DNA of 12,626 nucleotides from Bacteroidota bacterium (lineage in GTDB: Bacteria > Bacteroidota > Bacteroidia > Chitinophagales > Chitinophagaceae): assembly GCA_023436685.1 (NCBI GenBank), contig JAEZIL010000142.1, forward strand, positions 1 through 12,626. The letters run 5' to 3'. Position numbers and translations under genes: made by a program. The first letter of the stretch is position 1. Each line of letters begins with the position of its first letter. Under the pieces are notes generated by a model, which saw only the letters and a list, made by a program, of their open reading frames with translations, was not told where the DNA came from and did not search any database. Positions 4,527 to 12,626 of the stretch are shown here, piece after piece.

Positions 4527-5345
4527 CTAGAGGTGAGCCATGAAAATTGGTAACTTATGATCTTTAATGACTTGCAAAGAAAAGTTCTTCTTTAATAATT
4601 CAGAAAAGCTACTACGGCCAAAAGAACCTGTTACTAATAATGCGTCTCCCTTATCGGCTATCCAAGTGGCAAAATATTTTTTAGGCTCTGCCTCCAACTT
4701 AAAAAAGCTTACGTCTTTAAAGTGTCTGGCAGCTAACTCTTTTGTATAGTCTATATCTGGTATGGTATCATCGCTCGTTGACGCATATACTATAACTGTG
4801 CTTAAATTAGATAGTTCGGGAAATAAATAAGCAAATTGCTTCAGCGCAAAAGATGCAGTTTCGCTCCCGTCAAATGCAATAATAATACTTTGGGGAAAGA
4901 CGTAATTTTCAGGTACTAAGATGATTGGACATTCAGCCTTGTGGAGAGTGTCTTTCAAATATTCGTTTTGACTCATCTCACCAAGGTTTTCATAAAACAG
5001 CTCATTACTTAATACTAATAGATCTGCATAGCGTGTTTCCTTTTGAATTGTTAAGAGTGCGTTCCCTTCGTATTCTGAATGAACGCGATATTCAATATTG
5101 TATTTCTGACAATAAGCTTCAAATTTCTTAATGTTTGTTTCTATTGCTGGTTTGTCATTTATAATTTCAGGATAATAAAGGGGACCAGACATACTCAGGT
5201 AGTAAACCATTAAATCGGAATAGTCGATAGATGGTAAAAAAATGCCAGTTAGCAAAACCGGCGATAATTCATTTAGCCTTGTAATAAAATGTAGTGAACT
5301 TTCAGAGAAGTGTGTGCCGTCAAACACTGCTAATACCTTTTTCAT
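4527..5345 (-). CDS. Universal stress protein, tandem Usp domains
   Basis: This 272-residue cytosolic protein is made of two Usp folds. Domain 1 (about 1-147) begins KKVLAVFDG and ends with the strand PIILVPENY. Domain 2 (about 152-272) begins SIIIAFDGSE and ends with the glycine-rich loop TGSFGRSS at 239-246 and the strand PIFMAHL. The second domain keeps a recognisable nucleotide-loop-like G-x2-G pattern (Gly240, Gly243). In the first domain the equivalent region (LSNELFYENLGE) has lost it, so only one half may bind ATP. Usp proteins of this layout are often induced by oxygen limitation or growth arrest. The gene heads a two-gene unit with the transpeptidase and is divergent from the PAS kinase gene. 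An FNR-like box and a long inverted repeat lie directly upstream. Confidence 0.93.
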   Translation of the reverse strand: MKKVLAVFDGTHFSESSLHFITRLNELSPVLLTGIFLPSIDYSDLMVYYLSMSGPLYYPEIINDKPAIETNIKKFEAYCQKYNIEYRVHSEYEGNALLTIQKETRYADLLVLSNELFYENLGEMSQNEYLKDTLHKAECPIILVPENYVFPQSIIIAFDGSETASFALKQFAYLFPELSNLSTVIVYASTSDDTIPDIDYTKELAARHFKDVSFFKLEAEPKKYFATWIADKGDALLVTGSFGRSSFSELLKKNFSLQVIKDHKLPIFMAHL

Positions 5346-5346
5346 G

Positions 5347-5375
5347 CTTTTAGATTTTGTTTAAAAATCTAAAAG
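5347..5375. repeat. Perfect 12-bp inverted repeat just before the uspA-like start codon
   Basis: Arms CTTTTAGATTTT (5347-5358) and AAAATCTAAAAG (5364-5375) are exact reverse complements around a 5-nt centre, GTTTA. The repeat ends one base before the ATG of the stress gene (5345-5343, minus strand). It could be a DNA operator or, if transcription starts upstream of it, a leader hairpin covering the ribosome entry site. The repeat is seen; its role is inferred. Confidence 0.6.
5364..5371 (-). promoter_or_regulatory. Candidate -7 promoter element TAGATTTT for the uspA-like gene
   Basis: On the minus strand this reads TAGATTTT, 7 of 8 to the Bacteroidota TAnnTTTG element. It would give a start near 5357, 12 nt before the ATG, which puts the FNR-like box at exactly -41.5. 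No TTG element is present at the usual upstream spacing, as is common where an activator replaces it. It overlaps the inverted repeat. Confidence 0.35.
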
Positions 5376-5391
5376 AGTAGTGTACTATTTT

Positions 5392-5405
5392 ATGATTAGA
5401 ATCAA
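5392..5405. promoter_or_regulatory. FNR/FixK-like box ATGAT-TAGA-ATCAA
   Basis: It matches the FNR/FixK/ANR consensus TTGAT-N4-ATCAA at 9 of 10 fixed positions; on the minus strand it reads TTGAT-TCTA-ATCAT. Its centre is 53.5 bp upstream of the first base of the stress-gene ATG. The Crp/Fnr-type response regulator encoded next door is the natural candidate to bind it. Confidence 0.55.
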
Positions 5406-5414
5406 ACCGATTTA

Positions 5415-5426
5415 TGATACACGTCA
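5415..5426. promoter_or_regulatory. Second TGA-N6-TCA core, two helical turns upstream
   Basis: TGA-TACACG-TCA shares the Crp/Fnr core with the box at 5392-5405, and the centres are 22 bp apart, so both would lie on the same helix face. Beyond the core the match to the FNR consensus is only 7 of 10. It is supported mainly by its spacing. Confidence 0.35.
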
Positions 5427-5664
5427 CCAAGTAATAGGGTATTGATCTTCATATGGTTTTGAGGCTTATGTATCATATTCTCTATCATAATAGTGTTTAT
5501 GGATATGCTTGCTTGGAGGGCATTTTTATACGTTTACCGAGAATGTCTAAAGCCAGCCGAAGTATCTTTTTCGCAAATAGTTCGGTCATGAAGAATGTGT
5601 TCATAGCAGAAAATTCATGTATAAAATTCATTTTTGGTTGTAACTTAGTGTTATACAATATCCC

Positions 5665-6840
5665 GTGGAGAGTAAACGCTATGAATTTGAAGCGCTGTTT
5701 AACAATGCTGCAATAGGAATAATTATTGTGAATAGCGAAGGCAATATTTTGCTAGTTAATCAATTTGCACTAAATCAGTTTGGGTATGAGTCTGAAGAGT
5801 TGATTGGACAGAAAATAGAAGTGCTGATCCCACGTCGTTTTCAAAAGCGGCATGAGGCACACCGAGACCATTACCACCAGCATAATCCTCACAGTCGTCC
5901 AATGGGACGAGGTATGGATCTGTTTGCAATAAAGAAAGGAGGCACCGAATTTCCTGTTGAAGTAAGCCTCTCAACTTATCATAACGAAGCCGGACATTTT
6001 AGTATAGCCTTTATTAGTGATATTACAATTCGCAAGCAATCTGAACAAGCTTTGGTCCAGCTTAATGCTGAGTTAGAAAAGAAGGTAAGTGAACGTACGC
6101 AGTCTCTTCGGGAAGCATTAGAGAAAGAGAAGGAGTTAAATGAATTGAAGTCACGATTTGTGTCTATGGCTTCACACGAGTTTCGTACGCCATTAAGCAC
6201 CATTCTTTCTTCAGTGTATCTTGTATCGCAATATACAAGTACTGAAGATCAGCCAAAAAGAGATAAGCATGTACAGCGGATTATTTCTTCGGTAAACATG
6301 TTAACTGATATACTGAACGATTTTCTTTCGGTGGGAAAAATAGAAGAAGGGAAGATACAGGTACGGATGTGTGACCTGAACATGAAAGAAACTGTGGAAT
6401 CGCTAATAACAGAGATACACCCGATTCTCAAGGGTGGCCAGCAAATAAGTTACAATCATCGCGGCATAAATACTTTGCGCCTAGACGTTGGATTATTGCG
6501 GCATATTCTAATGAACCTGGTATCCAATGCTATCAAGTTTTCCCCCGATAATGGTACTATCTGGATAGAAACTATCCTAAATACGGAAACACTTGACCTT
6601 AGCGTGCGCGATGAAGGTATGGGCATTTCAGAGGAAGATAAGCAGTATCTTTTTCAACGATTTTTTCGTGGTGCAAATGTCAGCAATATACAAGGTACGG
6701 GCCTGGGGCTACATATAGTATCAAAATATGTCGAATTGCTAGATGGAAAAATCACTTGCCAAAGCGAACTTGGAAAGGGTACAACATTTACTATTACATT
6801 CAATTTAAAAGACAGTCATGAAGAAGGTACTGCTCGTTGA
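5665..6840 (+). CDS. Cytosolic PAS-domain sensor histidine kinase, FixL-like
   Basis: This 391-residue kinase begins at GTG 5665; a TAA at 5641-5643 and the absence of an upstream ATG leave this start, and the PAS fold begins at once. Residues about 5-122 are one PAS domain (GIIIVNSEGNILLVN, FGYESEELIGQ, then KKGGTEFPVEVSLS). Its helix/loop at 60-83 is His-rich, with His63, 66, 69, 71, 73 and 76. A coiled-coil linker spans about 123-163. The HisKA box SHEFRTPL places the phosphoacceptor at His171. The HATPase has an N box at 280-294, DEGMGI at 316-321, the F box at 329-336 and GTGLGLHI at 344-351. There is no transmembrane segment. RH at 62-63 aligns with the haem-ligand region of rhizobial FixL (RHDSY), so oxygen or gas sensing is plausible but unproven. 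The gene overlaps its response-regulator partner by 23 nt. Confidence 0.92.
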   Translation: MESKRYEFEALFNNAAIGIIIVNSEGNILLVNQFALNQFGYESEELIGQKIEVLIPRRFQKRHEAHRDHYHQHNPHSRPMGRGMDLFAIKKGGTEFPVEVSLSTYHNEAGHFSIAFISDITIRKQSEQALVQLNAELEKKVSERTQSLREALEKEKELNELKSRFVSMASHEFRTPLSTILSSVYLVSQYTSTEDQPKRDKHVQRIISSVNMLTDILNDFLSVGKIEEGKIQVRMCDLNMKETVESLITEIHPILKGGQQISYNHRGINTLRLDVGLLRHILMNLVSNAIKFSPDNGTIWIETILNTETLDLSVRDEGMGISEEDKQYLFQRFFRGANVSNIQGTGLGLHIVSKYVELLDGKITCQSELGKGTTFTITFNLKDSHEEGTAR

Positions 6841-7876
6841 AGATAATACAGACATACGCGAAAACATGTCTGAGATACTTACTTTATCTGGTTATGAAGT
6901 TTTTACCGCACCAGATGGGAAGCAAGGTGTAACAGCTGCGATAACTCATAAGCCGGATATTATTATATGCGATATAATGATGCCGGTTTTAGACGGTTAC
7001 GGTGTTATTCATATGTTGCAACGAAATGCTGATACGCGTAATATTCCGTTCATATTCCTGACGGCAAAAGCTGAAAGAGATGAGATTCGTAAAGGTATGT
7101 CGCTGGGTGCCGATGACTATATTACGAAACCTTTTAATGGTACTGAGCTTCTAAATGCTATAGAAAGCAGGCTACGCAAAAATGAATTATTGCGTATGGA
7201 CCTATCGCAAGGTATTGCGGGTATACAGGATATTGCCACCTATGTGGGTAGCTCTGATATAGTTCAATTGATAGCGGATGAAGGCTATACACATCAATAC
7301 AGGCGTAAGCAGGTAATTTACAATGAAGGAAATCATGCTCATAAATTATACTATGTCCAGGCAGGCAGGGTTAAAACTTATAAAACAAATGACGATGGTA
7401 AAGAACTAGTAACAGGCATATTTAACCAGGGAGAGTTTTTTGGATATGTTCCAATACTTGAGCATACTCCTTACCGCGAAACAGCTGAAACGCTTGATGA
7501 TAGTGAAATATCCACAATACCCAGAGATAGTTTCGAAGATCTGATCTATAAAAGTCCTGAAGCACTGAGAAAAATGGTATCCTTGTTGGCGCATAACGTT
7601 GCACAGAAAGAAGAACAATTATTAGGCCTGGCTTATAATTCTCTACGCAAAAAGGTGGCTAATGCATTGGTAGCTGTATATGAAAAGTATAATGGAGATA
7701 CTCAAAGGGCAACACCAATAGATATTAGCAGGGAGAATTTAGCATCAATTGCGGGAACGGCAAAAGAATCTTTAATTCGTACACTCAGTGATTTTAAAGA
7801 AGAGAGGCTGATAGATATTGTTAAAGGTGAGATTATAGTGCTTGACGAGAAAAAACTGCGAACGCTTATGAATTAA
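6818..7876 (+). CDS. Response regulator with Crp/Fnr-type output (REC + cNMP-like + HTH_Crp)
   Basis: This 352-residue regulator opens with a complete receiver, about 3-120: acidic pair Glu8/Asp9, phospho-acceptor Asp52 in ICDIMMP, Thr82 and Lys104 in TKPF. Residues about 145-265 form a Crp-like beta-barrel (KQVIYNEGNHAHKLYYVQAG, then GEFFGYVPI), followed by a dimerisation helix and a winged HTH at about 275-345. The recognition helix reads GTAKESLIRTL; Glu317 and Arg321 align with the residues that contact TGA/TCA in E. coli CRP (Glu181, Arg185) and FNR (Glu209, Arg213). FNR Ser212 is replaced by Ile320. There is no FNR-type cysteine cluster at the N-terminus, so control should come through the receiver. 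The ATG lies within the end of the kinase gene, indicating translational coupling. Confidence 0.93.
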   Translation: MKKVLLVEDNTDIRENMSEILTLSGYEVFTAPDGKQGVTAAITHKPDIIICDIMMPVLDGYGVIHMLQRNADTRNIPFIFLTAKAERDEIRKGMSLGADDYITKPFNGTELLNAIESRLRKNELLRMDLSQGIAGIQDIATYVGSSDIVQLIADEGYTHQYRRKQVIYNEGNHAHKLYYVQAGRVKTYKTNDDGKELVTGIFNQGEFFGYVPILEHTPYRETAETLDDSEISTIPRDSFEDLIYKSPEALRKMVSLLAHNVAQKEEQLLGLAYNSLRKKVANALVAVYEKYNGDTQRATPIDISRENLASIAGTAKESLIRTLSDFKEERLIDIVKGEIIVLDEKKLRTLMN

Positions 7877-8267
7877 ATATACTGCGTATATAGTCGTTAA
7901 ATTCTACACGTAACGAGCTAAATTCTTTTTCCATGCGTTGTACGTCTTTCCGCAACTGTGAAATCACTGTTTCAGACCTCTCGCCGTTGTGAGAAAGTTG
8001 TACAATATCTCTACGAAGCAACACTATTACAGCGTCCTTGTTTATAAACAAGCTCTGGTAATGTTCTAGTTTTTCAAGTGTTTCTTTGCCTACATTACGC
8101 TTCACAATATCTGCAATGCGGTTTTTCATATGTACATTCTCCTGTTGCTGATAATCAAGCATGCGTAACCATGTGCCAGTTTCATAATGGCCTTGCTCCT
8201 CATATATATCTCCTGTTGCTGTCAAGTTTGTTTGTTCTTTTGGTAAAGCTATATGTAATCTTTTCAC
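7866..8267 (-). CDS. Small coiled-coil protein of unknown function
   Basis: This 133-residue protein starts at GTG 8267; no in-frame ATG lies nearby upstream. It has no signal peptide, membrane segment or known catalytic motif. Residues about 33-60 (WLRMLDYQQQENVHMKNRI) and 96-125 (VISQLRKDVQRMEKEFSSLR) are rich in charged residues with heptad-like hydrophobics, so it is probably a helical, coiled-coil protein. I do not recognise a named family. It sits 50 nt behind the TauE/SafE-like gene on the same strand, as the last member of the cbb3 operon. Its 3' end overlaps the end of the response-regulator gene by 11 nt in opposite orientation. The consistent coding frame and operon position make it likely real. 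Confidence 0.72.
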   Translation of the reverse strand: MKRLHIALPKEQTNLTATGDIYEEQGHYETGTWLRMLDYQQQENVHMKNRIADIVKRNVGKETLEKLEHYQSLFINKDAVIVLLRRDIVQLSHNGERSETVISQLRKDVQRMEKEFSSLRVEFNDYIRSIFNS

Positions 8268-8317: not shown

Positions 8318-9034
8318 TTACTTGTCTGCTTTATGGCAACAATTAGCTTTTATTTCTTCTCCTTGAATGCTCAATTCAGGGCTAAAATATGGTATGCCCA
8401 GGTTCATGCCCCGAACAATAAATAAGCTGCCGAAAGTAAACAGTACTAATGGTACCCATTTCCTTACCCACAAACTTTTAAATAAGTTAGCTTGGTTCCC
8501 TAATATCGTTAGGGTTACCAGCATTGGTATAGTGCCCATGCCAAATGCGTACATTAGTGATATAGATTCTAATGATGTGCCTGCAGACATACTCAGTGAG
8601 AGCGCCATATAAACCAAGCCGCATGGCAATATCCCGTTAAGTGCACCAGCAACAAGTAAAGTTGCTAATGATGGGTTGCTCATCATATGGCCTAATGCAC
8701 TTTGTGCCGGCTTTGCCCAAGGGAAGCGTAGCCATGTTAACATGCCAGGTATAAAAGTGGCAAGGCCAACTAGCAGCAATATTACTCCTGCTATAATAGA
8801 TATGTATTGCTGTATGTGTGGGTTGAAAAGCGATTTGAATGAATATAGTGTCCATCCTAGTACAGCATATACAGAAATTCTACCAAGATGATATAACAGT
8901 ACAGCCGCCCATTTTTTATAAGATTTAAGGACATTATATGGTATTATCCACATAATTGGTCCGCAGATGCCTGCGCAATGTAGGCTACCTGTTAGGCCCA
9001 TAGCGAATGCAGCAATTATGGCTGGAGTGTTCAT
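8318..9034 (-). CDS. TauE/SafE-UreH-like membrane protein, probable metal transport in cbb3 assembly
   Basis: This 238-residue integral membrane protein has about six hydrophobic segments. It begins with the characteristic MGLTGSLHCAGICGP (residues 12-26, Cys20 and Cys24), and the second half contains NGILPCGLVYMALS (133-146, Cys138) and AFGMGTIPML (163-172). This is the sulfite-exporter TauE/SafE family, UreH-like branch, related to the DsbD membrane core. Members that follow ccoH in cbb3 operons are thought to help supply copper or assemble the oxidase, but the substrate here is inferred only from position. The C-terminus ends in NCCHKADK (231-238), a possible metal-binding tail. The start overlaps the ccoH stop by 4 nt, so the two are translationally coupled. 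Confidence 0.87.
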   Translation of the reverse strand: MNTPAIIAAFAMGLTGSLHCAGICGPIMWIIPYNVLKSYKKWAAVLLYHLGRISVYAVLGWTLYSFKSLFNPHIQQYISIIAGVILLLVGLATFIPGMLTWLRFPWAKPAQSALGHMMSNPSLATLLVAGALNGILPCGLVYMALSLSMSAGTSLESISLMYAFGMGTIPMLVTLTILGNQANLFKSLWVRKWVPLVLFTFGSLFIVRGMNLGIPYFSPELSIQGEEIKANCCHKADK

Positions 9035-9486
9035 TTATATATTTTAATGGGAGTTTCCTGGTAATATTCTCTGTTTCCTGTATTCCATTTAAGTTTAACC
9101 AGGTAGCTAGTTTCTTGCAATTCTTTTGTTGGAATATTATAGCAACCTTCTGCATTGGTTTCTATGTTATAGATTCTATCCCAACGTGCATTCACCTGCG
9201 AGTAGAAATGGATTGTTCCTTTTAGCGTACTGTTTCTAAATTCTTCAGGAAAGGTGATCTGAATATTTTGGCTAGTTTGTTTTAATGAAATTGCTTCAGA
9301 AAGTTTAGATTGGTTTTTGCTGGCATTGATGATATTTTGATATTTAAGCTCTTCACTATAATAGTCTTTTGAAACTAGGTCAAAGTCTTGTCGCATACTG
9401 CCCACAACCAATGTGGCAATAAGTGCTACAAAACCTAGATATAGAATAATAATTCTTGTCCCCCAACTAAGCGTGATATTGCTCAC
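9031..9486 (-). CDS. ccoH: CcoH/FixH-family cbb3 oxidase assembly protein
   Basis: This 151-residue protein has one N-terminal membrane helix (about 11-28, IIILYLGFVALIATLVV) followed by an extracytoplasmic domain. The FixH signature is visible: MRQDFDLVSKDYYSEELKYQ (31-50), then a beta-rich segment with GTIHFYSQVNARWDR (90-104) and the closing YLVKLKWNTGNREYY. In well-studied bacteria CcoH joins the cbb3 complex and is needed for its assembly and stability. The start is GTG at 9486, 22 nt after the ccoG stop; the leader between is A/T-rich and lacks a clear Shine-Dalgarno sequence. It overlaps the next gene by 4 nt. The symbol rests on the family signature and on its place between ccoG and the TauE/SafE-like gene. 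Confidence 0.9.
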   Translation of the reverse strand: MSNITLSWGTRIIILYLGFVALIATLVVGSMRQDFDLVSKDYYSEELKYQNIINASKNQSKLSEAISLKQTSQNIQITFPEEFRNSTLKGTIHFYSQVNARWDRIYNIETNAEGCYNIPTKELQETSYLVKLKWNTGNREYYQETPIKIYK

Positions 9487-9508: not shown

Positions 9509-10903
9509 TTAATTAGAATTGAATGGCCCAAGAAAAGTAGTTTGGATAGTTTTGATCTTATGCCCATTTTCGTAAACACCCAGTTCGAGTAGTGTCTTTC
9601 TTTTTTTGACGTTACTGGCATCCAGGCTGATAAACAATGATCCTGAACTTACATTCTCTCCACGAACTTTTAATGTTGTTTCGCCAACAAGGGCTATAGT
9701 ACCTTCAAAGTTCTCTGGTCTTAGCTCTAATGTCTTTGCTTCATATGTCTTATTTAGCATTCTATAATTATATAGGTTGCTGATTTTACCGTTTGTTTGC
9801 TGATAGAGTTGTCCCGGTGTACGAAGTAATGAAATGCCTACATCTGTTCTGCTGGCTAGTAAATATACCAGTACACCCAACAGTACGGCCATAACAGCTG
9901 AATAGGCACGCATACGCTTGGTGAATCTGAATGGGATACTATTTGAGATAGTATTTTCCGAAGCGTAACGTATCAGCCCTTCTTGGAATCCAACAGCACG
10001 CATCATATTGTCACAAGCGTCGATACATGCTGTACAGTTGATGCATTCCAGTTGAGTTCCGTTCCTGATATCAATACCAGTGGGGCAAACTTTTATGCAT
10101 TGAGCGCAATCAATACAATCCCCGGAACTTCTCGCTTGTTTTTTATTAAACTTATTGCGGGGCTCACCTCTTTTATAATCATAAGTAACATTGATAGAGT
10201 TTTTATCAAGAAGCACACCTTGCATGCGGCCGTATGGGCATACAACAGTACATACCTGTTCACGGAACCAGGCATAAACCAAGAAAAAAACTGTTGTAAA
10301 AAGTGCGATAGCGCCTAAACCACCTAAGTGTTTGGTAACAGGTTCTGTGATAATTCGCTTTAGCTCATCCACACCTATAATATAGGCTAGAAATGTGTTT
10401 GCAATCAGGAAACTAATCAACCAAAAAATGGTCCATTTACCCGTTTTTCGCATTATTTTATTGGTATTCCAAGGTGTCTTCGCCAGCATTTTTTGATGTG
10501 CTGCATCACCCTCAAACCAATATTCTACCTTTCGGAATACCATCTCCATGAAAATAGTTTGCGGACATGCCCAGCCGCAAAATATCCTGCCAAAAACTAC
10601 AGTGAATAGAGCAATGAAAACAATAAACAGTATCATGCCCAAACCGAAAATGAAAAAATCCTGTGGCCAGAAGATTTGACCGAACAAAATAAACTTACGC
10701 TCCAGTATGTTGATCAGGAAAAAAGGATGTCCATTTATTTTAATAAAAGGAAGAATGAAAAATACAGCCAGGTATAAAATACTAAGGTAAGTGCGAGCAA
10801 GATAATATCTACCTTTAGGTTTTTGCGGATAAACCCAAACTCGCTTCCCTTCTTTATCAATAGTAGCTACACTATCCCGAAATGTATTTGCCTCAGATTG
10901 CAT
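9509..10903 (-). CDS. ccoG: CcoG/FixG cbb3 oxidase accessory protein with two [4Fe-4S] motifs
   Basis: This 464-residue protein has about five membrane helices (near 36-55, 85-107, 157-177, 196-212 and 333-350). Two classical 4Fe-4S ferredoxin motifs lie at 263-273 (Cys263, 266, 269, 273) and 287-297 (Cys287, 290, 293, 297). Two further cysteine pairs lie in the membrane part: CGWAC at 109-113 and CTVVC at 218-222, as usual in FixG/RdxA. An Ig-like C-terminal domain fills about 385-460. CcoG is reported as a copper reductase (Cu(II) to Cu(I)) serving cbb3 maturation. Length and domain order match the family, and nothing is missing. It begins 11 nt after ccoP and is followed by ccoH, the usual gene order. 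Confidence 0.96.
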   Translation of the reverse strand: MQSEANTFRDSVATIDKEGKRVWVYPQKPKGRYYLARTYLSILYLAVFFILPFIKINGHPFFLINILERKFILFGQIFWPQDFFIFGLGMILFIVFIALFTVVFGRIFCGWACPQTIFMEMVFRKVEYWFEGDAAHQKMLAKTPWNTNKIMRKTGKWTIFWLISFLIANTFLAYIIGVDELKRIITEPVTKHLGGLGAIALFTTVFFLVYAWFREQVCTVVCPYGRMQGVLLDKNSINVTYDYKRGEPRNKFNKKQARSSGDCIDCAQCIKVCPTGIDIRNGTQLECINCTACIDACDNMMRAVGFQEGLIRYASENTISNSIPFRFTKRMRAYSAVMAVLLGVLVYLLASRTDVGISLLRTPGQLYQQTNGKISNLYNYRMLNKTYEAKTLELRPENFEGTIALVGETTLKVRGENVSSGSLFISLDASNVKKRKTLLELGVYENGHKIKTIQTTFLGPFNSN

Positions 10904-10914
10904 GGGTGGTACTG

Positions 10915-12057
10915 TTATATATGTTTTGTGTTGCCAGTAGCAGAGGTAGTACTATCCTGTTTAGCCGTACGCTCTTCAAATAAGTCTCCTTGCTTTTCCT
11001 TTGGTGCTACAGGTTGTTTGCCTTTAAGTGACTGAACATAACTGCTGACTTCTGCGATCTGTTTAGGAGAAAAATCATCCTTCCAACTTTTCATCCCCTT
11101 GTCCGGCCATCCATACTTTATTGATTTAAATATGTCTTGAAGGCTACCGCCATGTAACCAATAACTATCTGTAAGGTTAGGGCCCACACCGCCGCCGCCA
11201 TCCTTTGCATGACATGCTGCACAGCTTGTTTGGAAAATTTGCTCTCCGGCTGCTATGCCTGATGCATCAAGCAGTACCACTGTATTCTCATCTACATTAT
11301 TGGCAGATTTAGCTAAGTATGCCGCTTTTTCTTCTTCGCCTTTTTCAACTTCTGCTGCATACTCCTGCAATGAGCTGGGACCGTTACCGCCCATATGGTA
11401 GTAGTACATATAGACTATAGATATTACAATTGTTAGATAAAATCCATACTTCCACCAAGGGGGTAAGCTATTGTCTAGTTCTTTGATACCATCATAGTCG
11501 TGGTCAAGCATTATGTCATTCTCTTTTTCAATTGCTACAGCCTTATTGAATCTATCCCAGAACGGTTTATTTACAATGGTTTTTACTTTTTTAGCAGCTT
11601 CAGGTTTTTTGCTAAGCATCCTTACCATTATAGCCATAACAATAAGCATAGCCATAACAATGAATAATTCAAATATGATCAGTCCAACTAATAGATAGAA
11701 GTCATTTGCTGCAATGCCGGCAACCATCTGGGGTTTGCTTGATACTATTGCTTCCTGCGCATTTACATAGCTAAGTGGGAATAATACTAGTGCTATAGCC
11801 AGTAAGTTTCGAGTAATTGTTGGAGTGTTTAAATCATCCTTAAGCTTGTCTCGATATACTGAAACCAGCGAGCTTAGCACATTGCCAAGTACTCCTATGG
11901 CAAAAAGCAAACAAATAGCAAGTGTTACAAGGCCAATAAGTAATACATTGAAGGTTTCGGGTTTTTCTTGTATAGCTGCTACGTCACTGCCAAATGTTAT
12001 TAGCGGCATAATTGAGAGACAGGTCAAAACAAGCAATTTGAAATAATGTCGTTGCAT
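10915..12057 (-). CDS. ccoP: cbb3 cytochrome c oxidase subunit III, CcoP, with a single haem c
   Basis: This 380-residue membrane cytochrome has hydrophobic segments at about 5-22, 36-62, 82-100, 119-147 and 203-220, and then a periplasmic cytochrome c domain at about 265-346. The haem c site is CAACH at 279-283, with a likely axial Met322 in KGMKSW. WWKYGFYLTIVISIVY (201-216) is the conserved CcoP segment ahead of the cytochrome domain. Only one CxxCH occurs, whereas proteobacterial CcoP has two; the mono-haem form is usual in Bacteroidota. CcoP receives electrons from soluble or membrane cytochromes and passes them toward CcoO and CcoN. A lysine/glutamate-rich tail follows residue 347. It lies 23 nt after the ccoQ-like gene and 11 nt before ccoG. 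Confidence 0.94.
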   Translation of the reverse strand: MQRHYFKLLVLTCLSIMPLITFGSDVAAIQEKPETFNVLLIGLVTLAICLLFAIGVLGNVLSSLVSVYRDKLKDDLNTPTITRNLLAIALVLFPLSYVNAQEAIVSSKPQMVAGIAANDFYLLVGLIIFELFIVMAMLIVMAIMVRMLSKKPEAAKKVKTIVNKPFWDRFNKAVAIEKENDIMLDHDYDGIKELDNSLPPWWKYGFYLTIVISIVYMYYYHMGGNGPSSLQEYAAEVEKGEEEKAAYLAKSANNVDENTVVLLDASGIAAGEQIFQTSCAACHAKDGGGGVGPNLTDSYWLHGGSLQDIFKSIKYGWPDKGMKSWKDDFSPKQIAEVSSYVQSLKGKQPVAPKEKQGDLFEERTAKQDSTTSATGNTKHI

Positions 12058-12080: not shown

Positions 12081-12251
12081 CTATTGTTCCTGTCCGTTGA
12101 ACGGCAATTGTTTCAGGTCGTTGATATATTTTCTATTTACGCGCAATGCCCAAAGGGTTAATACTGAGAAAAAAAGAAAGAATAAGATCAACGAGATCAT
12201 TGGATACAAGCCAATACCTGTTATATGTTCGAGATAAGTTTTAAATTTCAT
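12081..12251 (-). CDS. ccoQ: CcoQ/FixQ-like small membrane subunit of cbb3 oxidase
   Basis: This 56-codon gene starts at ATG 12251 and stops with TAG at 12081-12083. The product has one hydrophobic helix at about 15-36 (LYPMISLILFFLFFSVLTLW) followed by a basic turn (RVNRKY) and a short polar tail ending NGQEQ. This is the shape and size of CcoQ/FixQ, which stabilises the oxidase, and it has the expected position between ccoO (32 nt upstream) and ccoP (23 nt downstream). CcoQ sequences are poorly conserved, so the name rests on size, topology and gene order more than on a motif. Confidence 0.85.
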   Translation of the reverse strand: MKFKTYLEHITGIGLYPMISLILFFLFFSVLTLWALRVNRKYINDLKQLPFNGQEQ

Positions 12252-12283: not shown

Positions 12284-12626
12284 CTATTTCTGTTGAAGTT
12301 TTATGTCAGTACCTACTCGTTGCAGGTAAGCTATCAGGGCAATAATTTCCTTATCGCTTTTTATCCGGATATTGTCTTTTGCAAGGTTTGCTACAACTAT
12401 TGCCGATTGTTTGCTGATATCTGCATTTGCTATTTGGTCAAATCCTTTAGGATAAGGCACCCCAAGAGTTTGCATTGCCCTGATCTTTGAACCTGTGATA
12501 GTAGTGTCAAGCTTATTCTCAAATAGCCATTGGTAATTTGGCATAATTGAACCTGGCGACATACTTGATGGTTCGTACATGTGGTTGAAATGCCAACTAT
12601 CAGGGTATTTTCCACCTATCCTGGCC
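12284..12626 (-). CDS. ccoO: cbb3 oxidase subunit II, CcoO, C-terminal part (runs off the right edge)
   Basis: The minus-strand frame is open from the right edge to a TAG at 12284-12286, giving 113 residues. It opens with ARIGGKYPDSWHFNHM and continues EPSSMSPGSIMPNYQWL, which match the mono-haem CcoO region around the axial methionine (family pattern RVGGKY-D-WH followed by S-MP-Y-WL). The CxxCH should lie just outside the window. The tail then has KEIIALIAYLQRVGTDI, typical of the last helix of this cytochrome c fold. CcoO carries one covalent haem c and passes electrons to the CcoN catalytic subunit in the inner membrane. In many Bacteroidota ccoN and ccoO are one fused gene; this cannot be judged here. 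It is the first gene visible of the operon transcribed leftward. Confidence 0.93.
   Translation of the reverse strand, partial: ARIGGKYPDSWHFNHMYEPSSMSPGSIMPNYQWLFENKLDTTITGSKIRAMQTLGVPYPKGFDQIANADISKQSAIVVANLAKDNIRIKSDKEIIALIAYLQRVGTDIKLQQK

What the first reader, a model, noticed from the sequence alone, without database searches (positions are those of the whole stretch)
5665..7876. Condensed FixL-FixJ-FixK circuit: PAS kinase coupled to a REC-Crp fusion beside a cbb3 operon
Rhizobial control of cbb3 oxidase uses three proteins: a PAS kinase, a REC-LuxR regulator and a Crp/Fnr regulator. Here a soluble PAS kinase gene overlaps by 23 nt a gene whose product carries the receiver and the Crp/Fnr DNA-binding module in one chain, and the pair abuts ccoOQPGH. 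This looks like a one-step relay from an oxygen or redox signal to high-affinity respiration genes. The architecture and neighbourhood are seen; the target set is inferred. REC-Crp proteins are known in Bacteroidota, but I do not know of a defined oxygen circuit for them.
Basis: partly seen in the sequence, partly recalled or inferred. Interest (0 to 1): 0.72.

Follow-up and report, generated by a model that had tools for sequence, protein, structure and literature searches.

The report
Two-component low-oxygen switch in Bacteroidota
A sensor kinase and a gene activator made by fusing a receiver to a Crp-type DNA-binding module form a conserved pair that probably switches on low-oxygen respiration and stress genes in Bacteroidota, doing with two proteins what rhizobia do with three.

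Summary
Window 5665-6840 encodes a soluble PAS-HisKA-HATPase kinase; it overlaps by 23 nt a REC-cNMP-HTH_Crp gene (6818-7876) that converges on a cbb3 operon. A kinase lies directly upstream in 123 of 139 non-redundant loci. Of 86 genomes listing both genes, 35 have REC-Crp within 15 kb of ccoG, in all orientations. Usp, HemN, CcoI-type, Hsp20 and Fe-S-repair genes recur nearby. An unbiased dyad search found a Crp/Fnr box, TGAY-N4-RTCA, fixed at -41.5 and often also -63.5. The window's only two such cores stand 22 bp apart in the usp-kinase promoter. In genomes without a strong FNR-like match, box counts are higher where REC-Crp is present: 3.47 vs 0.81. Against uniqueness: genomes without REC-Crp carry the same box at cco (15 of 19), so REC-Crp looks like an alternative driver of an FNR-type regulon. 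FixL's proximal-heme histidine position is kept in 118 of 123 partners and 4 of 27 unpaired PAS; this favours O2 sensing without proving it. Heme, oxygen, phosphotransfer and DNA binding are untested.

The parts
5665..6840 (+). soluble PAS-HisKA-HATPase sensor kinase (391 aa, GTG start)
   Evidence: Pfam PAS, HisKA, HATPase_c; kinase directly upstream of REC-Crp in 123 of 139 loci; model mean pLDDT 90.9
5851..5853 (+). codon of kinase His63, aligned with the FixL histidine recalled as the proximal heme ligand
   Evidence: PDB-sequence alignments; His in 118 of 123 paired kinases vs 4 of 27 unpaired PAS domains, 4 of the 27 being gaps there
6175..6177 (+). codon of His171 in the SHEFRTPL H-box (phospho-acceptor, inferred from the family)
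   Evidence: invariant in alignment A3 of 56 kinases
6818..7876 (+). REC-cNMP-HTH_Crp response regulator (352 aa)
   Evidence: Pfam; D9, D52, K104 invariant and T82 nearly so in 24 homologs; 7999 homologs scored, a capped number
6818..6840 (+). 23-nt overlap of kinase and regulator genes
   Evidence: the same -23 offset recurs among relatives, -4 being the commonest
7760..7798 (+). putative recognition helix AKESLIRTLSDFK (residues 315-327)
   Evidence: largely invariant in A1; aligned with ATExxIRLL of FNR-like proteins found near cco
5392..5405 (.). Crp/Fnr-type box ATGATTAGAATCAA (proximal for usp)
   Evidence: motif class found de novo in relatives
5414..5427 (.). second box ATGATACACGTCAC, centre 22 bp from the first
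   Evidence: spacing 22 is the commonest in the loci examined (51 of 91 successive pairs)
5364..5371 (-). weak -7-like element TAGATTTT for usp (1 mismatch, 2 bp off the canonical offset)
4527..5345 (-). universal-stress-type protein, divergent from the kinase
   Evidence: Usp match below Pfam's cut-off (19.2 vs 24 bits); own small cluster in 4 loci
7866..8267 (-). 133-aa ORF of no known family, tail-to-tail with the regulator
   Evidence: no Pfam or NCBIfam hit; relatives in the same place in 6 loci
8318..9034 (-). DsbD_2-type membrane protein of the cco cluster
   Evidence: lies next to CcoH in many fetched loci
9031..9486 (-). FixH/CcoH
9509..10903 (-). CcoG
   Evidence: TIGR02745 above cut-off
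10915..12057 (-). CcoP
   Evidence: FixP_N and cytochrome c; TIGR00782 below its cut-off
12081..12251 (-). small membrane ORF, candidate CcoQ
   Evidence: position and size only
12284..12625 (-). C-terminal end of CcoO (in relatives a fused CcoNO)
   Evidence: FixO; C-terminus of subunit I/II model NF011053

Best explanation
This is a two-component system in which a soluble FixL-like PAS kinase phosphorylates a response regulator whose output is an effector-free Crp/Fnr module. The activated regulator binds TGAY-N4-RTCA boxes centred at -41.5, often with a second at -63.5, and works as a class-II activator at TAnnTTTG promoters of cbb3 oxidase and its maturation genes, Usp, Hsp20, DoxX and Fe-S repair genes, and sometimes of its own operon. 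Most likely signal: low oxygen, read by heme on the PAS domain. It does in one relay step what FixL-FixJ-FixK does in two, and stands in for, or beside, an FNR-like regulator. Shown by computation: pairing, linkage, box, geometry, target classes, box shared with FNR-bearing genomes. Inferred: phosphotransfer, DNA binding by this protein, heme, oxygen, direction of regulation.
For: Kinase directly upstream in 123 of 139 loci, 110 with a gap of 50 nt or less. REC-Crp within 15 kb of ccoG in 35 of 86 genomes, orientations 11/9/8/7; the cco label changes at least 26 times on the REC-Crp tree (shuffled mean 34.5, least of 100 is 28). REC-Crp tracks ccoG (OR 5.4, p 3.5e-11). Recurrent neighbours: Usp, CcoI-type ATPase, HemN, Hsp20, RIC. 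De novo dyad ATGAT-N4-ATCAT: 39 of 913 regions vs 0.4 expected, 0 of 144 convergent regions. -7 element at exactly 29 or 51 bases from the box centre, which with T at -12 (PMC6847099, passages) is -41.5 and -63.5. Composite sites: Usp 38 of 71, CcoNO 9 of 15, CcoI 8 of 18, DoxX 8 of 9, RIC 6 of 9, Hsp20 6 of 10 vs 92 of 859 other genes. In genomes without a strong FNR-like match: target classes 46 of 125 vs 45 of 455 others, 0 of 125 at control spacings. Genome-wide composite counts: REC-Crp without FNR-like mean 3.47 (98 genomes) vs neither 0.81 (78), p 2e-14; against only the 18 'neither' genomes of 3.8 Mb or more, mean 1.22, p 3e-4. cAMP-pocket positions not kept (24 homologs); one Cys only, C51, in the window protein, so the Crp half lacks the known built-in sensors. 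FixL heme-His position kept in 118 of 123 vs 4 of 27 control PAS.
Against: The box is not specific: cco promoters of REC-Crp-negative genomes carry it (15 of 19), and the strict ATGAY-N4-RTCAT composite occurs 38 times in 40 REC-Crp-negative and 55 times in 40 REC-Crp-positive genomes, all with ccoG. Phylogeny is not controlled in the genome-wide counts, and the FNR cut-off is not a clean gap. HemN 3 of 12, NosZ 0 of 2 and thioredoxin 0 of 3 first-gene promoters give no significant support. 16 of 139 loci lack an adjacent kinase above the score used. 51 of 86 genomes show no link within 15 kb in the listed matches, and in the genome contigs sample only 6 of 45 loci hold cco genes within the flank. 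8 of 35 linked genomes also have a strong FNR-like match. The FixL distal-Arg position is Met in the window, and Arg in only 36 of 123 partners. -7 spacing in the window is off by 2 bp (usp) or 4 bp (kinase), each with 1 mismatch.
Confidence: 0.68

Rival explanations
1. The boxes are used by an FNR-like (or another Crp/Fnr) protein, and the kinase/REC-Crp pair controls something else and merely lives in the FNR-regulated neighbourhood.
For: The same box sits at cco promoters in REC-Crp-negative genomes (15 of 19), where a Crp/Fnr protein without receiver lies near cco in 8 of 20 loci, 7 of these with the cysteines; recognition helices are alike. In G292, counted as linked only at 31 kb, an FNR-like gene lies about 6 kb from ccoG.
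Against: 98 genomes with REC-Crp and no strong FNR-like match have higher composite counts than 78 genomes with neither, 3.47 vs 0.81, and genomes with both have the most; target promoters in FNR-negative loci keep the box; none of the 42 linked stretches held within 9.4 kb of REC-Crp contains a separate Crp/Fnr gene, CcoNO being inside 28 of them.
Confidence: 0.15
2. The relay is real but its signal is not O2 via heme: NO, redox state or a flavin or other small ligand of the PAS domain; the output is a general redox or nitrosative stress regulon.
For: Fe-S repair (RIC), Hsp20 and, in 5 loci, NosZ lie among the neighbours; the distal heme residue varies; kinases differ in length.
Against: cbb3, CcoI and HemN are typical low-O2 genes (general knowledge); the proximal-His position is kept in 118 of 123 but in only 4 of 27 unpaired PAS.
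Confidence: 0.22
3. The neighbourhood is a coincidence of this window.
For: The pair and cco converge without a shared promoter; 51 of 86 genomes show no link within 15 kb.
Against: 35 of 86 genomes within 15 kb, about 1% expected per genome, in all orientations and with at least 26 changes on the tree.
Confidence: 0.02

Closest known systems
FixL-FixJ-FixK cascade of rhizobia
   Same: Soluble PAS kinase whose PAS matches heme-PAS FixL, Crp/Fnr-type final regulator without Fe-S cysteines, cbb3 genes as targets. PMC4999443 (passages) describes FixK as lacking the Fe-S cluster and driven by FixLJ, and proposes that FixLJ-FixK replaced FnrN on existing FnrN sites in Caulobacterales.
   Different: Receiver and Crp module in one chain, no LuxR-type FixJ; receiver nearest to PhoB/OmpR-type models; Bacteroidota -7 promoter; heme not shown.
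FNR-like regulators of Bacteroidota
   Same: Same TGAY-N4-RTCA box, same cco promoters, similar recognition helix.
   Different: The 12 FNR-like proteins aligned keep four cysteines (C44, C47, C93, C146 of the first row; Fe-S cluster inferred); REC-Crp lacks them and carries a receiver.
CRP (cAMP receptor)
   Same: cNMP-binding fold and HTH_Crp.
   Different: Positions that I align with CRP Glu72 and Ser83 (numbering recalled) are Tyr and Glu in the window protein, so cAMP control is unlikely.
DosP / FixL heme PAS domains
   Same: PDB sequence matches with E from 7e-11 to 5e-9; histidine aligned in the FixL alignments shown.
   Different: Met where FixL has its distal Arg (Arg220 of the Bradyrhizobium protein, recalled); heme binding not tested.

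Membership tests
Two-component system (cognate kinase-regulator pair) | Kinase and response regulator genes adjacent, with catalytic and receiver residues kept | tested here: met
   H-box invariant; D9, D52, K104 invariant, T82 nearly; 123 of 139 adjacent.
Two-component system (cognate kinase-regulator pair) | Phosphotransfer from kinase to regulator | not testable with these tools
   Needs biochemistry.
FixL (heme oxygen-sensing kinase) | Heme-PAS with proximal His | tested here: inconclusive
   His at the aligned position in 118 of 123, 4 of 27 in control PAS; heme itself untested.
FixL (heme oxygen-sensing kinase) | Distal Arg (recalled) | tested here: not met
   Met84 in the window; Arg in 36 of 123 partners.
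FixJ-FixK two-regulator cascade | Separate REC-LuxR and Crp proteins | tested here: not met
   One chain carries REC and Crp modules.
FNR | Cysteines for an Fe-S cluster | tested here: not met
   Window protein has one Cys, C51, in the receiver; 12 FNR-like proteins keep four.
FNR | TTGAT-N4-ATCAA-like box at class-II position | tested here: met
   Core TGAY-N4-RTCA at -41.5; the outer base is A rather than T. That REC-Crp itself binds it is inferred.
CRP | cAMP-contacting residues | tested here: not met
   Positions 210 and 221 are Tyr/Phe and Glu/Asp in 24 homologs; equivalence to CRP residues by my own alignment.

The most novel reading that the evidence does not exclude
REC-Crp is the main oxygen switch of much of this class of Bacteroidota: a heme-PAS kinase plus a one-chain FixJ/FixK equivalent that took over, or shares, an ancestral FNR regulon and its -41.5/-63.5 boxes. 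It is the only one of the two regulators found in 82 of 178 ccoG-bearing genomes, and it also controls an undescribed small protein family (cluster 45).
Probability: 0.5. Interest if true: 0.8.

Novelty: new variant of a known kind. Interest (0 to 1): 0.68.

Why it matters
To my knowledge (recalled), oxygen control in Bacteroidota outside the gut genera is little described. If right, this gives the phylum a named oxygen relay, a testable promoter code (boxes at -41.5 and -63.5 of a TAnnTTTG promoter) and a case of regulator turnover on a fixed set of DNA sites, parallel to the replacement of FnrN by FixLJ-FixK proposed for Caulobacterales (PMC4999443, passages). Of 178 ccoG-bearing genomes, 171 have REC-Crp, a strong FNR-like match or both, so most cbb3-bearing members of the sample could be assigned a candidate regulator.

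Tried and rejected
ATGAY-N4-RTCAT as a REC-Crp-only box: rejected. The composite with the -7 element occurs 38 times in 40 REC-Crp-negative and 55 times in 40 REC-Crp-positive genomes, all bearing ccoG (hand sums of the table). The 40 were the lowest-numbered of 63 negatives, and 40 low-numbered of 115 positives with G005, G009, G058 and G097 skipped. A TTGAY-N4-RTCAA version is rare: 12 of 80 genomes. A one-mismatch E. coli FNR box alone was not significant in the window (3 matches, 1.1 expected).

Mutual exclusion of linked REC-Crp and FNR-like protein: not significant genome-wide (8 of 35 vs 17 of 51, p 0.34).

The first PAS control, drawn by similarity to the window PAS, could not discriminate (9 of 11 with His); it was replaced by a Pfam-drawn control that used the 30 loci held out of 86 matches.

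The fold search with the kinase model returned mainly kinase-core and PAS/LOV-kinase matches among the 50 shown and said nothing on heme.

Literature: of ten searches that ran, two found nothing and the others listed no paper that by title and start of abstract describes a REC-Crp oxygen circuit; one search showed 20 of 894 papers and 15 of 17. Most subscription journals are not in that library. PMC8510549 was checked by passages only: 'receiver' does not occur, 'response regulator' once.

Rows dropped or limited: the match lists were cut, so distances use listed matches only. 100 of 150 listed REC-Crp copies were fetched, cco-linked first, so neighbour frequencies among the 139 loci overstate cco; the linkage count does not depend on that. 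3 loci without a usable REC-Crp gene and 6 near-duplicates were dropped. Genes were called by a simple longest-ORF rule. FNR-positive was set at best E below about 1e-65 by eye, where there is no clean gap: 19 of the 78 'neither' genomes have a weaker match (mean composite count 1.11; 0.71 in the other 59). REC-Crp-positive leaves out 53 genomes whose best E was only about 1e-40 to 1e-50. Table values were typed into a script by hand; the totals 198, 178 and 238 agree with the tool's tallies.
Full report
What is there. Window 5665-6840 encodes a 391-aa PAS-HisKA-HATPase kinase and 6818-7876 a 352-aa REC-cNMP-HTH_Crp protein, overlapping by 23 nt. Upstream and divergent is a Usp-like gene (match below Pfam's cut-off). 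Downstream, tail to tail, are a 133-aa ORF of unknown family and then a DsbD_2-type protein, FixH, CcoG, CcoP, a small candidate CcoQ and the end of CcoO, all on the minus strand.

A conserved pair. 7999 homologs of the regulator were scored, a capped number, and the 120 listed all have the same three Pfam domains. In 139 non-redundant loci (the window included) the gene directly upstream on the same strand is a kinase related to the window's in 123, with a gap of 50 nt or less in 110. 113 of these 123 kinases show no TM-strength hydrophobic stretch. Receiver residues D9, D52 and K104 are invariant and T82 nearly invariant in 24 homologs; the kinase H-box is invariant in 56 kinases. The window protein has one cysteine, in the receiver, and lacks the CRP cAMP-pocket residues at two aligned positions, so control through the receiver is the natural reading.

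Linked to cbb3. 296 genomes were drawn from the class of the genome of L018 (Flavihumibacter). 145 have a strong REC-Crp match and 178 have ccoG; 115 of 145 REC-Crp-positive vs 63 of 151 negative genomes have ccoG (odds ratio 5.4, p 3.5e-11). Among 86 genomes with both in the listed matches, 35 have them within 15 kb and 42 within 35 kb; at 15 kb the four relative orientations count 11, 9, 8 and 7. With about 1% chance per genome the binomial tail is 9e-46. On the REC-Crp tree the label 'cco genes in the held stretch' (40 of 139) changes at least 26 times (shuffled mean 34.5, least of 100 shuffles 28), so linkage has phylogenetic signal but arose or was lost many times. In the separate genome contigs sample 6 of 45 loci hold cco genes, with many short contigs. 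Other recurrent neighbour clusters are Usp (59 loci for the largest), a CcoI-type P-ATPase (30), HemN (22), Hsp20 (12), RIC/ScdA (11), DoxX (11) and a 128-136-aa family without Pfam or NCBIfam match (40 loci) (one representative of each named).

A promoter code. From 913 promoter-type intergenic regions an unbiased search for gapped palindromes put ATGAT-N4-ATCAT first (39 regions, 0.4 expected from shuffles, 0 in 144 convergent regions), then ATGAC-N4-GTCAT (21 vs 0.1). Of 447 loose sites upstream of genes, the Bacteroidota -7 element TAnnTTTG (at most 1 mismatch) begins at offset 29 from the box centre in 137 and at 51 in 96, against a background near 1.3% per offset. With the first T of that element at -12 (PMC6847099, passages seen), these offsets put box centres at -41.5 and -63.5, the class-II activator position and a second site two helical turns upstream. 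Successive cores are 22 bp apart in 51 of 91 cases. With this geometry as test, Usp 38 of 71, CcoNO 9 of 15, CcoI 8 of 18, DoxX 8 of 9, RIC 6 of 9, Hsp20 6 of 10, the unknown family 15 of 23 and the kinase itself 27 of 98 carry a site, against 92 of 859 other genes. HemN (3 of 12), NosZ (0 of 2), thioredoxin (0 of 3) and cco genes that are usually inside the operon (CcoP 0 of 15, CcoG 0 of 9, CcoH 0 of 4) do not stand out. The window holds exactly two TGAY-N4-RTCA cores, both in the usp-kinase intergenic region and 22 bp apart. The -7 spacing there is not canonical: 27 on the usp side and 33 on the kinase side, each with one mismatch. The window's own cco promoter lies outside the window.

Whose box is it? 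REC-Crp-negative genomes also carry the composite site at cco (15 of 19 loci), and there a Crp/Fnr protein without receiver sits close to cco in 8 of 20 loci, 7 of them with the FNR-like cysteines; unlinked REC-Crp genomes show the site in 16 of 20 and linked ones in 17 of 28. The strict ATGAY-N4-RTCAT composite does not separate the two kinds of genome. The box is therefore shared. To separate the two regulators, genomes were scored for FNR-like proteins with four invariant cysteines (alignment of 12; the Fe-S cluster is inferred) and composite counts were compared: neither regulator, 0.81 per genome (78); REC-Crp without FNR-like, 3.47 (98); FNR-like without REC-Crp, 4.12 with and 2.18 without ccoG (56 and 17); both, 8.36 and 5.79 (33 and 14). 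REC-Crp alone vs neither has p 2e-14, and p 3e-4 when only the 18 'neither' genomes of 3.8 Mb or more are used (mean 1.22); phylogeny is not corrected for. Inside FNR-negative loci the target classes keep the site (46 of 125 vs 45 of 455 other genes; 0 of 125 at shifted spacings; in FNR-positive loci 32 of 56, with 3 of 56 at shifted spacings). Of 178 ccoG genomes, 82 have REC-Crp alone, 56 the FNR-like protein alone, 33 both and 7 neither. The two do not exclude each other: 8 of 35 linked genomes have a strong FNR-like match, and in G292 one lies about 6 kb from ccoG.

The signal. The PAS matches FixL and DosP heme domains by sequence (E 7e-11 to 5e-9), and His63 aligns with the FixL histidine that I recall as the proximal heme ligand. 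It is His in 118 of 123 paired kinases, and in 4 of 27 Pfam-drawn PAS domains not paired with REC-Crp from eight REC-Crp-bearing genomes (4 of the 27 have a gap there). The residue at FixL's distal Arg is Met in the window (Arg in 36, Met in 35 of 123). Heme-based O2 sensing is the best reading, not a result. The model of the kinase is confident (mean pLDDT 90.9), but its fold search is not informative on heme.

Known or new. PMC4999443 (passages) describes FixLJ controlling FixK and FixK lacking the Fe-S cluster, and proposes that FixLJ-FixK replaced FnrN on existing sites in Caulobacterales. The present system is the same idea in another phylum with receiver and Crp module fused. Ten literature searches that ran listed no description of a REC-Crp oxygen circuit; most subscription journals are not in that library, so this is weak evidence of absence. 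I rate it a new variant of a known kind.

Noticed in passing
L087:10614-11021 (cluster 45; 42 proteins in 40 of 139 loci): A 128-136-aa protein family with no Pfam or NCBIfam match for its representative (consensus holds EFFskp and FRKSGkvWLETTvTDxWTLeeQNxqGE), often directly downstream of REC-Crp, with the composite box at 15 of 23 first-gene promoters: a candidate undescribed low-oxygen protein.
   Followed up: partly
L181-L184, L194, L198, L200, L205, L210, L212, L219, L220: FNR-like regulators with four invariant cysteines lie near ccoI/cco in 7 of 20 REC-Crp-negative and 5 of 20 unlinked REC-Crp-positive genomes, and the cco promoter box is the same, suggesting regulator turnover on fixed sites.
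   Followed up: partly
L185:16665-17390: A Crp/Fnr protein near cco that has none of the cysteine positions shared by the other twelve (one Cys in all), so probably not an Fe-S sensor.
   Followed up: no
window 7866-8267: A 133-aa ORF of unknown family, tail-to-tail with REC-Crp; relatives lie in the same place in 6 loci.
   Followed up: partly
L021, L038, L042: Loci with two full-length REC-Crp genes close together; in L038 and L042 they are tandem and no kinase like the window's was found on the roughly 5-kb contig.
   Followed up: no
L067:4693-6702: A Sec-dependent nitrous-oxide reductase (TIGR04246) lies within 10 kb of a REC-Crp pair, so the regulon may reach denitrification in some genomes; its cluster is in 5 loci.
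   Followed up: no
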